Virus record (IMG/VR): IMGVR_UViG_3300043425_000902
Location: 1 to 63,419 of that record
DNA from: a virus
Length of the DNA stretch: 63,419 nt
Strand: one strand, 5' to 3'
Made by a program: the position numbers and the translations under genes. Below, in pieces: positions 1-63,419 of the stretch (position 1 is its first letter; each line of letters starts with the position of its first letter). The notes beneath the pieces were generated by a model. The model saw nothing but the letters and a program-made list of their open reading frames with translations. It had not been told where the DNA came from and ran no database searches.

Positions 1-126
1 AAGGAGGCTGACCAGTGAACAAGCATATCATCCACCTCGCCGCTGTCGCTTGGGCAAACGGCGGAACCCTGTCCGGAGCCCGCCTGCACGGGGTCAACCT
101 GCGCGAGGCCGTCCTGAGCGGGGCCG
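1..126. repeat. Terminal direct repeat (circular-genome overlap), left copy
   Basis: Bases 1-126 are identical to 63278-63403. After that the copies differ: the left continues GACCTGTTCGGGGCC, the right GTCCTGAGCGGGGCC. Gene order is continuous across the junction, because the gene ending at 63295 overlaps the restarted pentapeptide gene at 63292. The simplest reading is a circular or circularly permuted molecule whose assembly broke inside the pentapeptide-repeat array. Confidence 0.9.
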
Positions 127-1091
127 ACCTGTTCGGGGCCAACTTGCGCGGGGCCGTCCTGAGCGGGGCCGTCCTGTTCGGGGCCAACTTGCGCGGGGCC
201 GACCTGCGCTGGGCCGACCTGTTCGGGGCCAACTTGCGCGGGGCCGACCTGTCCGGGGCCAACCTGCGCGGGGCCGTCCTGAGCGGGGCCGTCCTGTTCG
301 GGGCCAACTTGCGCGGGGCCGACCTGCGCTGGGCCGACCTGAGCGAGGCCGTCCTGAGCGGGGCCAACCTGCGCGGGGCCGTCCTGAGCGGGGCCAACCT
401 GCGCGGGGCCGTCCTGACCGGGGCCGCCCTCGGCCTCGGTGCCGACCTGTCCGGGGCCGAATACCAAGACGACACCCTCTCCGCCCGCATAGCCGCCGCT
501 GAACGCATGAACAAGCACATCATCCACCTCGCCGCCGTCGCATGGGCGAACGGCGGAACCCTGCGCGGTGCCAACCTGCGCGGTGCCTACCTGCGCGGCG
601 CCGACCTGAGCGGCGCCAACCTGAGCGGTGCCGACCTGCACTACGCCAACCTGAGCGGCGCCGACCTGCGCGGCGCCGACCTGATCGACGCCAACCTGCG
701 CGACGCCAACCTGATCGATGCCGACCTGAGCGGTGCCGACCTGCACTACGCCAACCTGCACGATGCCGACCTGCGCCGTGCCGACCTGATCGATGCCAAC
801 CTGATCGATGCCAACCTGAGCGGCGCCAACCTGAGCGGTGCCTACCTGCGCGGTGCCAAGTACGGAGGCGACACCCTCGCCGCTCTTATCGCCGCCGCCG
901 AGCGCATGGACCGATACACCTTCCACCTGTTCCGGCTTAAGGACGGCCCACACAAGGTCATGGCCGGATGCCGCTGGTTCACAGTCGATGACTACCGCGC
1001 GCACGTCGCGGCGGAATACCCAGACACCGACAAGGCCCGCGAGACGCTGGACATTCTGGACTTCTTCGAGCGGAGGCTGACCAGTGAGTGA
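15..1091 (+). CDS. Pentapeptide-repeat protein with internally duplicated module
   Basis: A 358-residue protein predicted to form a right-handed quadrilateral beta-helix. It holds two tandem modules, each opening with [18 protein letters not shown] (residues 2-19 and 166-183) and followed by A(N/D/V)LxGA-type pentapeptides with Leu at the centre. A non-repeat tail (from about 298) contains [17 protein letters not shown] and a terminal FFERR. The same tail occurs in the pentapeptide protein at 60278-60949, so the two are paralogues. The GTG start follows AAGGAGG at 1-7. The 3' end overlaps the next gene by 8 bp. Known pentapeptide proteins include gyrase-protecting DNA mimics, but nothing here fixes the role. 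Near-identical 15-bp DNA units make the array prone to length change. Confidence 0.9.
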
Positions 1092-2580: not shown

Positions 2581-4647
2581 ATGTCCGCCAGCGTGTCCAC
2601 GATCACACCACACGTGCGGAGGGTTGAGGCGCCGTCTGACCTGCGCGAGCTTCCCGGCTGGCTGTGCTGGCGGAACGAGCAGGTGCCGGGCGAGGAGAAA
2701 CCCCGCAAGGTGCCCTACTACGCCTCCGGGCAGCGTCGCCACGGCAAGCAGGGCGCGCCGGACGACAGGGCCAAGCTCGTGTCCTTCGCCGCAGCGCGCG
2801 ACGCCGCGTCGCGCATGGGCATGGACGGCGTGGGTCTGGCCATGCTGCCGGATTTCGGCGTCACGGCCCTCGACTTCGACTACTGCGTCGACGCCGCCGG
2901 GCGCCTGCCGCCGGAGGTCGAGAGCATCGTCAGCCAGACGTACGCCGAGTACTCCCCGTCGGGGAAGGGTGTGCGGGCCTTCATCAAGGGGCAGCTTGGC
3001 AACCAGAAGAGCCACCGGGACGCGGCCAACAGCTACGGCTTCGAGGTCTTCTCGTCCTCGGGGTACGTGACCTTCACAGGCAACACCCTGCCCTTCACCG
3101 AGGCGTTGGGTCTGGAAGACCTCGTCGCGCCGATGAACGACGACGTCGTGAGCCTCTTCAGGCAGCGCTTCGGTGACGGCGCCACGTCGCAGCGCGACGC
3201 GCCCGGCGCGCCCGGCGCGGACCCCTTCGAGACCTTCGAGCCCACCCTCGGCCTGACCCTCGACGAGGCGCGTGCGTACCTGTCCGACCTCGACCCCAAC
3301 ATGGGCCGCGAGCCGTGGATGCAGGTCGCCATGGCCCTGCATCACGAGTTCGGGGCGGAGGGCTTCGAGCTTTGGAACGACTGGTCTCAGGACGGCGTGC
3401 GCTACCCCGGCACGCATGCTTTGTCGCAGCAGTGGCTGAGCCTCGACAGGCGGCAGCCCGCCGGGCGCCCCATCACCATGCGCACGGTCAAGAAGATGAG
3501 CGCCGAGGCGCGCCGGGAGGCGGGTCTGGAGCCGCGAAGCCTGATTGAGACGCACGCCGAGGCCACGGACACCGACCCGGGCCGCATGTCGTCGAGCGAC
3601 GACTGGAAGGGGAAGTACCGCGTTTACACGGGCCTTGAGTTCTCTCAGCGCCCGCCCATCGACTGGATGATCAAGGGCGTCCTGCCCGACAACGCAGACC
3701 TCGTCATGATGTACGGCGCCAGCGGTTCGGGTAAGTCCTTCGTCGTCCTCGACATGGTCATGTCCCTCGTGCGGGGCGTGGACTGGAGGGGCAGGCGCAC
3801 GAAGCGTAAGCGGGCCCTGTACATCGCCGCGGAAGGCGGAGGGGGTGTCTCGCAGCGCCTGCGCGCGTACAGCCTCCACCACGGCGTGAAGCTCGACAAC
3901 CTGCCCCTCGGCATCATTCACGACGCGCCGAACCTCATGGTGGAGGAGGACGTGTCGGCCCTCGTCAAGGCCATCCTCGACGCGGGCGGCGCCGACCTGA
4001 TCGTCATCGACACGCTGGCTCAGGTCACGCCCGGGGCCAATGAAAACAGCGCCGAGGACATGGGTCTGGCCTTGAAGCATGCGCGGGCCCTGCGCCGCGC
4101 GACGGGCGCCGTCATCCTCCTTGTGGCGCACACGGGCAAGGATCAGGCCAAGGGGATCCGGGGGTGGTCCGGCCTGCACGCCGCGACGGACACGGCGATC
4201 GAGGTCGTCAAGCCGGAGGGCGAAGACGAGGACGACGCGCGCCTGATCCGCATCGCCAAGCAAAAGGACGGTCGCGACGACCTGTCGTGGGGGTTCCGCT
4301 TCGAGACCGTCGTCGTGGCTTTCGACAGCGACAACGAGGAGGTCACGTCTCTGGTGGTCGTCGAGGCCGACCCGCCGACGCGCACGCCCTCCGGCCAGCC
4401 CCGCAAGCTCGGTGCGTGGGAGGAGGCCGTCATGGACTACATCGCGTCCTTGGGCCTGTCCTTCTCCGGCCTGAGCATGGGCGACCTGCTTGACGGCGTC
4501 AGGGACAGCATCCCGGCTCCGGCGCCCGGAGAGCGCGACGTGCGCAGGCAGAACGCGATGCGCGCCGTGCGCTCCCTGTGCAAGGGCCACGACGCGCCCC
4601 TGATCCTCGAAAACGGTTTCGTCACTTTGGGTGCATTTCCCTCTTGA
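2581..4647 (+). CDS. Bifunctional primase-helicase (AEP-like primase, PriCT, RepA-like AAA)
   Basis: 688 residues. The N-terminal part (about 15-175) looks like an archaeo-eukaryotic-type primase/polymerase, with an acidic ALDFDYCVD motif near 95, SPSGKGVRAF near 126 and EVFSSSGYVTFTG near 150. A PriCT-type helical domain follows (about 210-300; YLSDLDPNMGREPWMQVAMA). The C-terminal half is a RecA-fold helicase of the RepA/AAA_25 type: Walker A GASGSGKS (about 380), Walker B DLIVIDTLAQ (about 471), LLVAHTGKD and GWSGLHAATDTAIEV. It probably unwinds DNA and lays primers for the polymerase at 7303. The last codons overlap the next promoter. Confidence 0.85.
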   Translation: MSASVSTITPHVRRVEAPSDLRELPGWLCWRNEQVPGEEKPRKVPYYASGQRRHGKQGAPDDRAKLVSFAAARDAASRMGMDGVGLAMLPDFGVTALDFDYCVDAAGRLPPEVESIVSQTYAEYSPSGKGVRAFIKGQLGNQKSHRDAANSYGFEVFSSSGYVTFTGNTLPFTEALGLEDLVAPMNDDVVSLFRQRFGDGATSQRDAPGAPGADPFETFEPTLGLTLDEARAYLSDLDPNMGREPWMQVAMALHHEFGAEGFELWNDWSQDGVRYPGTHALSQQWLSLDRRQPAGRPITMRTVKKMSAEARREAGLEPRSLIETHAEATDTDPGRMSSSDDWKGKYRVYTGLEFSQRPPIDWMIKGVLPDNADLVMMYGASGSGKSFVVLDMVMSLVRGVDWRGRRTKRKRALYIAAEGGGGVSQRLRAYSLHHGVKLDNLPLGIIHDAPNLMVEEDVSALVKAILDAGGADLIVIDTLAQVTPGANENSAEDMGLALKHARALRRATGAVILLVAHTGKDQAKGIRGWSGLHAATDTAIEVVKPEGEDEDDARLIRIAKQKDGRDDLSWGFRFETVVVAFDSDNEEVTSLVVVEADPPTRTPSGQPRKLGAWEEAVMDYIASLGLSFSGLSMGDLLDGVRDSIPAPAPGERDVRRQNAMRAVRSLCKGHDAPLILENGFVTLGAFPS
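3622..3629 (+). repeat. Over-represented strand-biased octamer GTTTACAC (13 sites)
   Basis: Plus-strand sites start at 3622, 10237, 17813, 23189, 33976, 51817, 54819, 55883, 57911, 59894 and 60847; minus-strand sites occupy 30566-30573 and 58656-58663. The following base is usually G. Sites fall in different reading frames (VYT, RVN, FT), within genes on either strand, and in intergenic DNA at 55883 and 57911. At about two-thirds GC fewer than one copy would be expected by chance. Role unknown. Confidence 0.75.
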
Positions 4648-53428: not shown

Positions 53429-53847
53429 ACCTATTGGTCATTTTTGAAAAAATTGGTGAGTGGGGGTGGAACAATTCTCAGGGCACCCGGAAACGGGGGT
53501 ATGGGGTCCACAGCATCTCGCCCCCAGCCCCCTCCCAGCCCGGCCCTGCACCCGAAAAGCTCAATGATATCAGCCACTTGGCCAGCTGCGCCGAGCCCAG
53601 ACCCATGGCTCACGGCCACGCTGCCCTGCGCCATCGGCCTGCAGCACGCAGGCTGCAGCACACCGCACCGGAGATCGCCACCGGCTGGGTGCAGGTGGGA
53701 TGTGGCAGTTGGTAATGGGTTACCTGAGGCAGGCTGCCGCTGGCTGGGCGTGGGAGGAGACCCCCAGCCCCAACCCGGCCGGATGGGAGCCCCTCACCAC
53801 ACCCAAGCCCTTGATAACACTGGACTTCCTGCCTGCCCTACGCGCGC

Positions 53848-53862
53848 GCACCTATAATGTGC
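53848..53862 (+). promoter_or_regulatory. Putative promoter/operator with TATAAT
   Basis: TATAAT (53853-53858) sits inside a shortened operator GCACC-TATAA-TGTGC (15 bp). No convincing -35 at 17 bp. About 95 bp upstream of the gene at 53958. Confidence 0.4.
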
Positions 53863-53957
53863 AATCGGCTGCATCTTTTTGGTTGCAGACATGTTCAAAC
53901 GGGTCCATACGTTGGCTCCCGGCTGTACCGGGGCCACACAACCTATGGAGACCTGAC

Positions 53958-54221
53958 ATGACCTTCACTCGTGAAAACCTCGAAGCCCTGATCGCTGAGT
54001 GCGGATCGTTCCTCCCGGCAGACGCTGGATACCGGGAGTGCGCCGACCTCGACGGGCAGGCCGCCCACCTGTTCCTGCAGGCCCTCGGATACTCCGTCCT
54101 CGGCCACCAAGACCGGCACACCCACGGCTGCGCCTACACCGCTTGCGGCGTGATCCTGAGCACAAACGGGTTCGTCCACCGCGACATCAACTTGGCGTGG
54201 AAGCTCCACCGCAAGGCCTGA
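53958..54221 (+). CDS. Hypothetical early protein (87 aa)
   Basis: Starts at the GGAGACCTGACATG cassette. MTFTRENLEALIAECGSFLP, ADAGYRECADLDGQAAHLFL, DRHTHGCAYTACGVILSTNG. Three cysteines and two histidines in the middle could bind metal. First gene of the divergent + strand unit leading to the helicase. No family recognised. Confidence 0.65.
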   Translation: MTFTRENLEALIAECGSFLPADAGYRECADLDGQAAHLFLQALGYSVLGHQDRHTHGCAYTACGVILSTNGFVHRDINLAWKLHRKA

Positions 54222-54281
54222 CCCCTCTCACCCCAGCCCGGGGCATCCCGCCCCGGGCCCACCACCCCATGGAGACCTGAC

Positions 54282-55793
54282 ATGACCTTCGCCCCCACCC
54301 CCCAGCAGGAAGCCTTCCTGAGCGCCCTGCGCACCACCACCTCGAACATCGCTCTGGAGGCCCGCGCGGGCTGCGGCAAGACCTCGACGCTCCTGCTGGG
54401 CGTTGACGTCGTGCGCGACCTGAACGCCCGCAACCGCGTGATCCTCGCCGCTTTCAACAAGGCGATCGTCGAGGAGGTCGAGACCAAGCTGACCAAGGCC
54501 GGTCACGGCTTCCCGCACGTGCAGGCCAAGACCGCCCACGGCCTCGGCCTGAGCCTGCTCAAGGACGCTGGCATCGACACCCGCCGAGGCCTGAACGCGC
54601 ACAAGGTCCGCGACCTGATCACCGCCGCCGGGCAGTCCGACGGCCTGTACCGCGACTACGCCTCGACCATCTCCAAGCTCGTCTCGCAGGCCAAGCAGGC
54701 CGCCCTCGGCGTGTTCGGGTCCGCCTCGGACGTCGAGCGCTGGCAGGGCCTCGCTGACCACTACGGCATCGAGCTGGAGGACGCCTACGCTGCGCGGATC
54801 ATCGCGGCGGCTCAGGACGTTTACACGCGGTCCTGCGCCGACCGCGAGACGTTCGACTTCGACGACATGATCCTCCTGCCTCTGCTGGCCAAGCTGTCGT
54901 CGCGCTTCCCTGCGGACTTCCTGTTCGTGGACGAGGCGCAGGACCTGAGCCCGGCCCGGCAGGCCCTGCTGGCCAAGTTCGTGAAGCCCCGCTTTGGCCG
55001 CCTGATCGTCGTGGGCGACCCGGCGCAGGCGATTTATGGCTTCGCCGGGGCCGACGCGCGGGCCTTCCAGAACCTGATCAGCGACTGGCGCTGCACCGTC
55101 CTGCCCCTGTCCGTCACCTTCCGCTGCCCCAAGGCGGTGGTCGCCGAGGCTCAGAAGATCGTGCCCGACATCACCGCCGCAGACAGCGCTCCCGAGGGCG
55201 TCGTGCGCAGCGAGGCGTCCCTGCCGCCCGTCCTCATCCCGGGCGAGGACGCGATCCTTTGCCGGAACACCGCCCCGCTCATCTCTCAGGCCTACGCGCT
55301 GATCCGCGCGGGCATCCCGGCCAAGGTCGAGGGTCGGGACATCGGGGAGGGCCTCGCCGCCCTCGCGCGACGCTGGAAGGTGCGCACGTGCGCCGAGCTG
55401 CTGGCGCGCCTCGACGCGCATCAGGAGCGCGAGGCCGCCAAGCTCGCGAAGCGGCCCGACGGCGAGGAGCAGGTCGAGCGCCTCGCCGACCGCCTCGACA
55501 CCCTGCGCGAGATCGTCTTCGCCTGTCAGGCCAAGGGCCTGCAGCTGGTGACCGACGTCACCTCGGCCATCGCCGACCTGTTCGGCGACGACGTGTCGAA
55601 GACGAAGGCGGCTGTGACGCTGGCCACGTACCACCGCTCGAAGGGCCGGGAGTGGGAGCGCGTCTTCCTGCTGGAGCACGCCGCGCGCTGCCCCTCCCGG
55701 GCCGCCCGCCAGCAGTGGCAGCTGGAGCAGGAGTACAACCTCGCCTACGTGGCCATCACCCGCGCCAAGCGCGAGCTGGTCTACGTCGGCTGA
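54282..55793 (+). CDS. UvrD/Rep-like superfamily 1 helicase
   Basis: 503 residues, shorter than host UvrD (about 720). QQEAFLSAL (Q-motif), ARAGCGKT (27-34, Walker A), FDFDDMILLP and VDEAQDLSPARQALL (about 216-230, motif II), GDPAQAIYGFAGA (motif III), TFRCPKAVV (motif IV), TYHRSKGREWERV (motif V) and EYNLAYVAITRAKREL (motif VI). Likely 3'-5' unwinding in phage repair or replication. Starts at the GGAGACCTGACATG cassette 60 bases after the previous gene. Confidence 0.9.
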   Translation: MTFAPTPQQEAFLSALRTTTSNIALEARAGCGKTSTLLLGVDVVRDLNARNRVILAAFNKAIVEEVETKLTKAGHGFPHVQAKTAHGLGLSLLKDAGIDTRRGLNAHKVRDLITAAGQSDGLYRDYASTISKLVSQAKQAALGVFGSASDVERWQGLADHYGIELEDAYAARIIAAAQDVYTRSCADRETFDFDDMILLPLLAKLSSRFPADFLFVDEAQDLSPARQALLAKFVKPRFGRLIVVGDPAQAIYGFAGADARAFQNLISDWRCTVLPLSVTFRCPKAVVAEAQKIVPDITAADSAPEGVVRSEASLPPVLIPGEDAILCRNTAPLISQAYALIRAGIPAKVEGRDIGEGLAALARRWKVRTCAELLARLDAHQEREAAKLAKRPDGEEQVERLADRLDTLREIVFACQAKGLQLVTDVTSAIADLFGDDVSKTKAAVTLATYHRSKGREWERVFLLEHAARCPSRAARQQWQLEQEYNLAYVAITRAKRELVYVG

Positions 55794-55830
55794 CCCCAGC
55801 CCCGCCCCGGGTTCGCCCGGGGCGGGATCT

Positions 55831-55874
55831 GAAACAATTCGTGATTGGCACCCGCTTGGGTGCAGGAGTACAGA
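55831..55874 (+). promoter_or_regulatory. Phage promoter/operator, member with 18-bp spacer
   Basis: Upstream element GAAACAATTCGTGA (55831-55844), -35 TTGGCA (55845-55850), 18 bp, -10 TACAGA (55869-55874). Operator GCACC-CGCTTG-GGTGC at 55848-55863. The GTTTACAC octamer follows at 55883. Confidence 0.7.
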
Positions 55875-55913
55875 GGAGGTGCGTTTACACGCGCCGAACA
55901 GAGGAGACCTGAC

Positions 55914-56543
55914 ATGATCCACCAGACCATCCAGCACACCACCCGCGAGGGCTGGCTCCACGCCTTCGCCGAGGCCGCCCGCCCCCGCTTCATCGAGGCT
56001 GGGCACCCCCTGCCTGAGACCCTGCGCATCGGCATCGGCTGGGGCAGCGGCGGGGCCCGCTCGCGGGCCATCGGCGAGTGCTACTACGGGGCCGCCAGCG
56101 CAGACGGGGTCCGCGCTATCATCATCACGCCCGGTGCGGGCATGGATGACGCCGCGCGTGCCGCCGACGTCCTGACGCACGAGCTGGCCCACGCCGCTCT
56201 GCCGGAGGGCGTCGGGCACAAGGCCCCCTTCAAGCGCCTCGTGACCGCCCTCGGCCTCGAAGGCAAGGCGACGGCCACCGTGGCCGGGGATGCGTGGCGT
56301 GCGTGGGCCCTGCCCATCATCGAGAGCCTCGGCCCCTACCCCCACGCCGCCCTGTCAGCCGGGTCCACCGGCAAGAAGAAGCAGAACACGCGCATGCTCA
56401 AGGCCGAGTGCTCCGAGTGCGGGTACACCGTGCGCGTCACCCGCAAATGGCTCGACGTCGGCTCTCCGCGCTGCGGCTTGTGCGAGGACGCGCCCCGCCT
56501 GATCTGCGAGGACGCCGGGGGAGAGGAGGGAGACGACGAGTAG
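55914..56543 (+). CDS. SprT-like zinc metalloprotease-fold protein
   Basis: 209 residues starting at the GGAGACCTGACATG cassette. The catalytic motif HELAHA (His89, Glu90, His93) and a following GHKAPFKRLV (His102 as third ligand) match SprT/WSS1-type metalloproteases. A C-terminal zinc ribbon CSECGYTVR and CGLCEDAP has two C-x2-C pairs. SprT-family members act on DNA-bound proteins; phage forms may clear or modify host factors (inference). The tail is acidic (EDAGGEEGDDE). Ends four bases from the convergent terS. Confidence 0.8.
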   Translation: MIHQTIQHTTREGWLHAFAEAARPRFIEAGHPLPETLRIGIGWGSGGARSRAIGECYYGAASADGVRAIIITPGAGMDDAARAADVLTHELAHAALPEGVGHKAPFKRLVTALGLEGKATATVAGDAWRAWALPIIESLGPYPHAALSAGSTGKKKQNTRMLKAECSECGYTVRVTRKWLDVGSPRCGLCEDAPRLICEDAGGEEGDDE

Positions 56544-57047: not shown

Positions 57048-57268
57048 CGCGCGACCTCCTCCGTGAACGAGGGTTCCAGCATACCACACCCCCACCCTCC
57101 ACCGCTACCCGCCAAGGGCTTCCTTGACGACGGGGACCTGCACCCTTCTGCTTGCTACCTGTCCGGGTCCTCTGCACCCTGTCCTGTGCACCCCCTCCCG
57201 CCCCTCTCCCCCTCCCACCCCGCTCCCCTCAGCCCCTGCCCCAGCCGCCCACCGCCCCGCCAACACCA

Positions 57269-57421
57269 GCAACACCGGGCCTGAGCACCCCGTGCAACAC
57301 CGCAACACGAGGGGCCCCCTCTAAAGAGGGGCCCCCCGACGTGTTGCAGTGGTGTTGCACTGGCGGGGTGCCTGCGGGTCTTACAACACGTTGCAACATG
57401 TTGTGCCGTGTTGCGTGTTGG
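57269..57421. repeat. GCAACAC iterons around a long interrupted palindrome
   Basis: GCAACAC starts at 57269, 57294 and 57302; the reverse form GTGTTGC starts at 57341, 57352 and 57408, with GTGTTGG at 57415. The arms 57292-57309 and 57340-57360 are inverted copies (identical apart from a three-base insertion). They enclose a hairpin of CCCCTCT/AGAGGGG, extended by GGGG/CCCC, at 57311-57338. A separate 10-bp palindrome CAACATGTTG lies at 57394-57403. Candidate initiator or terminase binding site. Confidence 0.65.
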
Positions 57422-57461
57422 CACCCAGAAAAGCGCCACCAAAAACGGCACCTTTTATGTT

Positions 57462-57522
57462 ACAATTCGTGATCAAAATCTGCACCTTCCCTGTTGCACC
57501 CACCCCCTCCCACCTGTACAAC
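57462..57522 (+). promoter_or_regulatory. Promoter with ACAATTCGTGA element, no inverted operator
   Basis: ACAATTCGTGA (57462-57472), -35 TTGCAC (57494-57499), 17 bp, -10 TACAAC (57517-57522). GCACC occurs as a direct repeat (57482 and 57496), but no GGTGC partner is present, so its control may differ from the other members. Confidence 0.55.
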
Positions 57523-57642
57523 ACTCTCAGAGGCGACGCGGTGAGACAGCCACGTCGATGTCCTCGACCCCCGCTCCGGGGCCGGGCTGCCCGGGACAGG
57601 AGGCGAGGCGGGGCGCTCTCCCCGCCGCCTTGGAGACCTGAC

Positions 57643-62996: not shown

Positions 62997-63295
62997 GTGA
63001 TGAACCCGACGAGGTCTACGCTGCGTGGGAAGCCTGCGCCTGCGACCGATATAAAGACGAGGAAAACGGCAACCCCCTTGGCCTCCCCCAAGGGATGCCG
63101 AACATCGACGATTTTAAAGACGGCTACCGCGCCGGTCAGGCCGCATCCGCAGAGCGGATCAAGGCGCTGGAGGAAGAGATCGCCGCCATGCAGGAAATAC
63201 CGGGAAACCTTCGGGTCGAGATGAGCGACATGCTGACCCGACTGCATGAACTACACCCCGAGGATTTTGTGTGGCTCAAGGAGGCTGACCAGTGA
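62993..63295 (+). CDS. Hypothetical protein (100 aa)
   Basis: ATGA overlap. MSDEPDEVYAAWEACACDRY, KDEENGNPLGLPQGMPNIDD, FKDGYRAGQAASAERIKALE, then EEIAAMQEIPGNLRVEMSDM. A C-A-C pair near the N-terminus and a coiled coil in the middle. The last codons (KEADQ) are encoded by the AAGGAGGCTGACCAG cassette that starts the pentapeptide gene. Confidence 0.65.
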   Translation: MSDEPDEVYAAWEACACDRYKDEENGNPLGLPQGMPNIDDFKDGYRAGQAASAERIKALEEEIAAMQEIPGNLRVEMSDMLTRLHELHPEDFVWLKEADQ

Positions 63296-63403
63296 ACAAG
63301 CATATCATCCACCTCGCCGCTGTCGCTTGGGCAAACGGCGGAACCCTGTCCGGAGCCCGCCTGCACGGGGTCAACCTGCGCGAGGCCGTCCTGAGCGGGG
63401 CCG
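63278..63403. repeat. Terminal direct repeat, right copy
   Basis: Identical to 1-126. The following 16 bases (63404-63419) then match an internal AVLSGAN-type pentapeptide unit of the left copy instead of the bases at 127-142. Confidence 0.9.
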
Positions 63404-63419
63404 TCCTGAGCGGGGCCAA
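63292..63419 (+). CDS. Pentapeptide-repeat gene, start only (truncated by window edge)
   Basis: Second copy of the start of the gene at 15: [21 protein letters not shown], then [20 protein letters not shown]. It differs from the left copy after residue 37 ([11 protein letters not shown] against [11 protein letters not shown]). It runs off the end, and it is the same gene if the molecule is circular. Confidence 0.85.
   Translation, partial: MNKHIIHLAAVAWANGGTLSGARLHGVNLREAVLSGAVLSGA

What the first reader, a model, noticed from the sequence alone, without database searches (positions are those of the whole stretch)
57269..57480. Candidate replication origin or packaging site with iterons and a nested palindrome
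Six exact GCAACAC/GTGTTGC iterons, inverted arms at 57292-57309 and 57340-57360 around a strong hairpin (57311-57338), a 10-bp palindrome (57394-57403), and an AT-rich stretch (57430-57480) occur in a region without genes. terS lies next to it. The arms differ only by a three-base insertion, so the whole can fold as a long cruciform.
Basis: partly seen in the sequence, partly recalled or inferred. Interest (0 to 1): 0.72.

Follow-up and report, generated by a model that had tools for sequence, protein, structure and literature searches.

The report
Phage replication origin beside terminase gene
The repeats and hairpin next to the DNA-packaging gene are most likely the place where this phage starts copying its DNA, and comparing many related phages shows which part of the phage's own copying enzyme reads the repeats and how the two change together.

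Summary
Six exact GCAACAC sites lie in 146 bp of a 547-bp gene-free gap between terS and the early genes, around a long hairpin (z = -8.5). The best reading is a replication origin, not a terminase site. (1) TerS DNA-binding domains are swapped among relatives without regard to the repeats: 85% identical domains sit beside different repeats, 21% identical ones beside the same repeats. (2) A gene-blind scan of viral contigs finds the same element directly 3' of homologues of the window's primase-helicase gene (2581-4647). (3) Across 73 such proteins, the repeat core (GCAAC, GCACC, GCAGC) is best predicted, among 660 columns, by residue 658 in helix 3 of a C-terminal winged helix: mostly R/K or N with GCAAC, H or D with GCACC, S/T with GCAGC. 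Related phages switch both together; held-out loci show four exceptions. (4) The hairpin apex (CTWWAG) stays while repeats change. The system works like P4 alpha, pRN1 ORF904 and RSF1010, fused into one protein, with the origin about 8 kb from the initiator gene. Packaging nearby is not excluded: a cultured relative's terminal repeat ends in the same gap. Nothing has been tested at the bench.

The parts
57096..57642 (.). Divergent gene-free region between terS (minus) and the first early gene (plus)
   Evidence: ORF list and family searches
57269..57421 (.). Whole iteron and hairpin element (proposed replication origin core)
57269..57275 (+). Iteron GCAACAC
57294..57300 (+). Iteron GCAACAC, left arm of long hairpin
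57302..57308 (+). Iteron GCAACAC, left arm of long hairpin
57341..57347 (-). Iteron GCAACAC (reads GTGTTGC on +), right arm of long hairpin
57352..57358 (-). Iteron GCAACAC (reads GTGTTGC on +), right arm of long hairpin
57408..57414 (-). Iteron GCAACAC (reads GTGTTGC on +)
57292..57360 (.). Long imperfect palindrome or hairpin with a three-base bulge
57311..57338 (.). Inner GC-rich hairpin; apex CTCTAAAGAG (reverse strand CTCTTTAGAG) fits the conserved CTWWAG apex
57382..57421 (.). Second inverted-repeat module with GCAAC cores at 57390 and 57393, palindrome 57394-57403 and GTGTTGC at 57408
   Evidence: the same two-module layout in relatives
57430..57480 (.). AT-rich stretch (61% AT), candidate DNA-unwinding element
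57494..57522 (+). Promoter-like TTGCAC-N17-TACAAC, same hexamers and spacing in L005; TTGCAC-N18-TATAAC in L002 and L022
   Evidence: not called by the strict sigma-70 scan
2581..4647 (+). Primase (prim-pol type N-terminus, PriCT-2), RepA-type AAA_25 helicase and C-terminal winged helix: proposed initiator
4414..4629 (+). C-terminal winged-helix domain (residues 612-683); residue N658 (codon 4552-4554) in helix 3 is the column that best tracks the iteron sequence

Best explanation
The element is a double-stranded replication origin. The C-terminal winged helix of the phage's primase-helicase (window 2581-4647) binds the GCAACAC iterons. Several copies bound on both flanks would load the RepA-type helicase ring and help open the AT-rich stretch and extrude the hairpin. 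The hairpin, whose apex is conserved while the iterons vary, would then be a single-strand initiation site where the primase domain starts primers, on the model of RSF1010 ssi hairpins. Shown by sequence comparison: the element exists, it recurs beside primase-helicase genes, and its iterons co-vary with helix 3 of the winged helix. Inferred: binding, helicase loading, hairpin priming and actual origin activity. In this phage clade the origin sits about 8 kb from the initiator gene, in the gap between terS and the early genes.
For: A gene-blind pattern scan of viral contigs gave 69 matches. Many lie directly at the 3' end of homologues of the window primase-helicase, for example L109, L110, L116, L120, L133, L135, L142 and L143, and more distant ones such as L094, L098 and L122. 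Eighty relatives fetched by protein alone carry iteron clusters 3' of the gene in nearly all cases. In 55 proteins with GCAAC, GCACC or GCAGC iterons, residue 658 has the highest mutual information of 660 columns (1.07 bits; the next is 0.64 bits, two residues away): GCAAC with R30 K3 V2 N2 M1 L1, GCACC with H11 D2, GCAGC with S2 T1. On a tree of the rest of the protein the iteron class changes 9 times; L327 (GCAAC, R) lies among L307, L320 and L296 (GCACC, H), and L314 (GCAAC, R) is sister to L319 (GCACC, H). Residue 658 falls in helix 3 of a predicted winged helix, and the best fold matches are almost all winged-helix domains. Held-out loci agree for H (L361, L371, L455), R (L358, L390, L446), N (L449), V (L374) and most S/T. 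The inter-iteron spacer holds the CTWWAG apex in 48 of 66 elements, against 3.7 expected. TerS domain types do not follow the iterons.
Against: No experiment. Held-out exceptions: L360 (R with GCACC), L440 and L503 (S with GCAAC), L452 (D with GCAGC), so one residue does not fully set specificity. Caulobacter phage RW shares N at this position but has no GCAAC cluster; its repeats look like CTAGYCGC. GC skew does not mark this site. Foldseek E-values for the winged helix are weak (best 0.05), though nearly all top hits are winged helices. The apex motif was chosen after seeing the data. Nine of the 39 GCAAC members were found by the iteron pattern itself.
Confidence: 0.85

Rival explanations
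1. A packaging (pac or cos) or concatemer-processing site: TerS binds the iterons and the hairpin positions the cut or primes duplication of the terminal repeat, as proposed for T7.
For: The element is adjacent to terS. In cultured relatives RW, KcrB and GB2A the 2940-bp terminal repeat ends in the equivalent divergent gap, 14 bp from a cluster of five CTAGYCGC repeats.
Against: TerS helix-turn-helix types are re-assorted relative to iterons: L030 and L075, 85% identical, have different iterons; L030 and L031, 21% identical, have the same iterons. In many phages the element lies beside the primase-helicase gene, not terS. The iterons track another protein.
Confidence: 0.06
2. One region with two functions: origin core (iterons and hairpin) plus a separate packaging terminus in the same gap, read by TerS at some other sequence.
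For: Position of the terminal-repeat end in RW, KcrB and GB2A; terS next door; the gap is 547 bp and the iteron element takes about 150.
Against: No TerS-specific sequence was identified; the end position is known only for relatives with about 59% identical TerL, and I did not find how their ends were determined.
Confidence: 0.35
3. An operator: the primase-helicase (or another phage protein) binds the iterons to repress the divergent early promoter, and the hairpin is incidental.
For: A promoter-like sequence lies just beside the array at 57494-57522 and is conserved in L005.
Against: In the primase-adjacent phages the element is 3' of the gene, where it cannot be its promoter operator. The hairpin apex is conserved across different iteron classes. 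Six or more sites around a hairpin is more than an operator needs. It may still be a side effect of origin binding.
Confidence: 0.05
4. An RNA feature such as a terminator or regulatory RNA hairpin.
For: Strong inverted repeat.
Against: No Rfam match, no terminator-like T-run, and repeats on both strands in matched pairs, as expected of protein sites on duplex DNA.
Confidence: 0.02

Closest known systems
Phage P4 alpha protein and P4 ori
   Same: One multidomain protein carries primase, helicase and a C-terminal winged helix that binds origin repeats (PMC4234260, citing Yeo et al. 2002).
   Different: P4 alpha has a bacterial-type TOPRIM primase (PMC4234260) and, from my own knowledge, an SF3 helicase; the window protein has a prim-pol type N-terminus and an AAA_25 RepA-type helicase.
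Sulfolobus plasmid pRN1 ORF904 and its stem-loop origin (PMC4234260)
   Same: Prim-pol primase, helicase and C-terminal winged helix; a stem-loop 3' of the gene is required and still works when moved elsewhere; stem conserved in structure, not in sequence. The same paper notes a stem-loop 3' of the replication gene in Bordetella phage BIP-1.
   Different: pRN1 has no iterons and an SF3 helicase; its binding motif was not identified.
RSF1010 oriV with RepC, RepA and RepB'
   Same: Iterons read by one factor, RepA-family hexameric helicase, and hairpins (ssiA, ssiB) used by the primase (PMC4234260).
   Different: Three separate proteins and longer iterons in RSF1010; one fused protein here.
Alteromonas phage PB15 (KX982260)
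   Same: 13 GGTTCA repeats around a CACACCTTATAGGTGTG hairpin directly 3' of a TOPRIM-helicase gene.
   Different: TOPRIM primase and other iterons; not annotated as an origin in the record.

Membership tests
Iteron-type replication origin | Several copies of a short repeat clustered in a non-coding region beyond chance | tested here: met
   6 copies in 146 bp; 1 of 1000 resamplings as dense
Iteron-type replication origin | Repeats read by the replicon's own initiator | tested here: met
   By co-variation only: residue 658 of the primase-helicase tracks the iteron core, highest of 660 columns; no binding assay
Iteron-type replication origin | AT-rich unwinding stretch beside the repeats | tested here: met
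   57430-57480, 61% AT, top 0.1% of windows
Iteron-type replication origin | Supports autonomous replication | not testable with these tools
   Needs a plasmid assay or marker-frequency data
P4 alpha / pRN1 ORF904 type replicator | Primase, helicase and C-terminal winged helix in one protein | tested here: met
   Solved prim-pol type primases match residues 12-181, PriCT-2 231-305, AAA_25 354-523, predicted winged helix 612-683
P4 alpha / pRN1 ORF904 type replicator | SF3 helicase domain | tested here: not met
   Pfam gives AAA_25 (RepA/RecA-like) instead; so it works like these but is not a member
RSF1010 type oriV | RepA-family helicase | tested here: met
   AAA_25, E = 6.8e-36
RSF1010 type oriV | Hairpin single-strand initiation sites used by the primase | tested here: inconclusive
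   A hairpin with conserved apex lies between the iterons; its use by the primase is untested
TerS-bound pac site | Site sequence follows the TerS DNA-binding domain | tested here: not met
   HTH types and iterons re-assorted
TerS-bound pac site | Packaged DNA ends at or near the site | tested here: inconclusive
   True of the gap in RW, KcrB and GB2A; unknown for this phage

The most novel reading that the evidence does not exclude
Phage origins and their fused primase-helicases carry a nearly readable recognition code: one residue in helix 3 of the winged helix largely sets the middle base of the GCA[A/C/G]C iteron, so origin specificity can switch in a few steps, has done so repeatedly, and separates co-infecting phages into origin-compatibility groups. 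The initiator can act at an origin kilobases away beside terS, in a gap that may also hold the packaging end.
Probability: 0.45. Interest if true: 0.72.

Novelty: new variant of a known kind. Interest (0 to 1): 0.62.

Why it matters
Origins of most environmental phages are unknown. This gives a sequence rule that locates the origin, names the protein and the residue that read it, and predicts the repeat from the protein for a large group of phages and prophages of Proteobacteria. It joins three textbook systems (P4, pRN1, RSF1010) in one fused protein and offers many natural protein and origin pairs for testing how initiator specificity evolves.

Tried and rejected
TerS as reader of the iterons: rejected by domain re-assortment. 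RNA element or terminator: no Rfam or terminator hit. GC-skew mapping of the origin: skew follows gene strand and shows no turn at 57.3 kb. Direct DNA similarity in cultured phages: none. TerS protein search in cultured phages: no match. RW as a simple positive control for GCAAC iterons: failed, it has no GCAAC cluster. Dense clusters in L357 and in L446 (GCAGC) turned out to be protein-coding repeats and were discarded. A paper on the RW-type phages' ends was not found in the library. Bordetella phage BIP-1 could not be read for comparison: not held under that accession.

Full report
What was checked. The window is a 63,419-bp virus record. The gap 57096-57642 lies between terS (minus strand; Pfam Sf6_terminase) and small early genes on the plus strand.

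Relatives with the element beside terS. A scan of viral contigs with the window TerL gave 80 loci. Six of them (L002, L005, L022, L030, L031, L035) carry the same GCAACAC repeats around a GC-rich hairpin upstream of terS. Others carry the same layout with other repeats: TGCAGCA (for example L017, L049, L058, L075), GTCACAC (L026), CCTCTCATC (L027), ACATCTCG (L032) and CCATGGGAC or GCACCATGG types (L070, L040). So the layout is kept while the repeat sequence is replaced.

The TerS N-terminal helix-turn-helix region is swapped between phages without regard to the repeats. L030 and L075 are 85% identical there but have GCAACAC and TGCAGCA repeats. L030 and L031 are only 21% identical but have the same repeats. 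L031 and L049 are 76% identical with different repeats. The TerS C-terminus and TerL follow the phage lineage instead. This removes the simplest packaging-site reading.

The element appears beside the replication gene elsewhere. A pattern scan that knows nothing of genes (two GCAACAC, 20-50 bases, then GTGTTGC) found 69 viral contigs. In many of them the element begins at or just after the 3' end of a homologue of the window's primase-helicase gene at 2581-4647. Eighty relatives of that protein, fetched by protein alone, nearly all have a repeat cluster 3' of the gene. An unbiased count of the commonest 6-mer gave 5 to 16 copies in 260 bp in most loci, against about 3.5 in resampled sequence.

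The repeat tracks one helix of the primase-helicase. In 55 proteins whose repeats have a GCAAC, GCACC or GCAGC core, I ranked all 660 alignment columns by mutual information with the core. The best is residue 658 (window numbering): GCAAC goes with R (30), K (3), V (2), N (2), M (1) and L (1); GCACC with H (11) and D (2); GCAGC with S (2) and T (1). No residue is shared between classes. The second-best column is two residues away. On a tree built from the rest of the protein the class changes nine times, and near neighbours differ in both repeat and residue together: L327 against L307, L320 and L296; L314 against L319. Proteins outside this group with other repeats (CCCTTCA, CCCGACTT, CCCTACTT) have a different helix 3 altogether.

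Structure. A model of the last 100 residues has helix, short strand, helix, helix and two strands, a winged-helix order, with residue 658 in the third helix. Solved-structure matches are weak in E-value but almost all are winged-helix domains. The full-length model and family searches give a prim-pol type N-terminus (solved primases match residues 12-181), PriCT-2 and a RepA-type AAA_25 helicase.

Held-out test. Loci not used for the rule came from bacterial genomes and from a further viral scan with the window's clade. Agreements: H with GCACC in L361, L371 and L455; R with GCAAC in L358, L390 and L446; N with GCAAC in L449; V with GCAAC in L374; S or T with GCAGC in about a dozen related loci. 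Exceptions: L360 (R, GCACC), L440 and L503 (S, GCAAC) and L452 (D, GCAGC). Apparent conflicts in L357 and in one L446 cluster were coding repeats. The association is strong but one residue does not determine everything.

The hairpin. Between the innermost facing repeats, 48 of 66 elements contain an apex of the form CTWWAG (or a one-base variant), against 3.7 expected from shuffled spacers, and this holds across repeat classes. Stems of five or more pairs occur in 25 of 57 spacers, against 3.2 expected. The motif was chosen after looking, so the number is a guide only. A constant hairpin beside changing repeats fits two readers: the variable winged helix for the repeats, and a constant part of the protein, perhaps the primase, for the hairpin.

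How it most likely works. Shown by comparison: element, recurrence, co-variation, predicted fold. Inferred: the winged helix binds the repeats, the helicase ring is loaded, the AT-rich stretch opens, and the primase starts at the exposed hairpin. This is the order of events described for RSF1010 (RepC on iterons, RepA unwinding, RepB' priming beside stem-loops) and close to P4 alpha and pRN1 ORF904 (PMC4234260). In pRN1 the stem-loop 3' of the gene is needed and still works when moved, which makes an origin 8 kb from its initiator gene unsurprising.

Packaging. The cultured relatives RW, KcrB and GB2A have identical 2940-bp terminal repeats whose right end lies in the equivalent gap, 14 bp from five CTAGYCGC repeats out of 14 in the genome. 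So the gap may hold both the origin and a terminus. RW also warns against over-reading the residue rule: it has N at 658 but no GCAAC cluster.

Limits. All evidence is comparative. The host is unknown. Nine of the 39 GCAAC proteins were found through the repeat pattern, but the H and R separation does not depend on them. The classes used a count threshold set by me. No published description of this origin family was found among the papers searched, which does not show that none exists.

Noticed in passing
window 1-142 and 63278-63419: The record's ends repeat each other (139 of 142 bases) inside a pentapeptide-repeat gene, so the genome is probably circularly closed with an assembly join there.
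   Followed up: partly
L437 position 1 = window 57318: A contig from another metagenome, identical to the window over the first 5000 bases, starts in the loop of the inner hairpin: a second assembly broke at this structure.
   Followed up: partly
window 53700-56543: A UvrD-type helicase gene and two other plus-strand genes sit between terL and terS, which are both on the minus strand.
   Followed up: no
L030, L031, L035, L049, L058, L072, L075 (terS genes): TerS N-terminal helix-turn-helix domains of at least three kinds are exchanged between related phages while the C-terminus is kept; what DNA each kind reads is unknown.
   Followed up: partly
MK929790 57116-59918: The RW-type phages have a terL split in two around a methyltransferase gene, with the left end of the terminal repeat inside the N-terminal part.
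   Followed up: no
L386, L392, L394, L396, L399, L401, L405 and others (3' of gene): A further prophage group in beta- and gammaproteobacteria has CGGGAA repeats 3' of the helicase gene together with a PKRxTERAQ-type helix, which looks like another repeat and helix pairing.
   Followed up: no
L362, L373, L383 (3' of gene): Proteins with RDQRR at the start of helix 3 go with GAAGCA repeats, suggesting that a second position also contributes to specificity.
   Followed up: no
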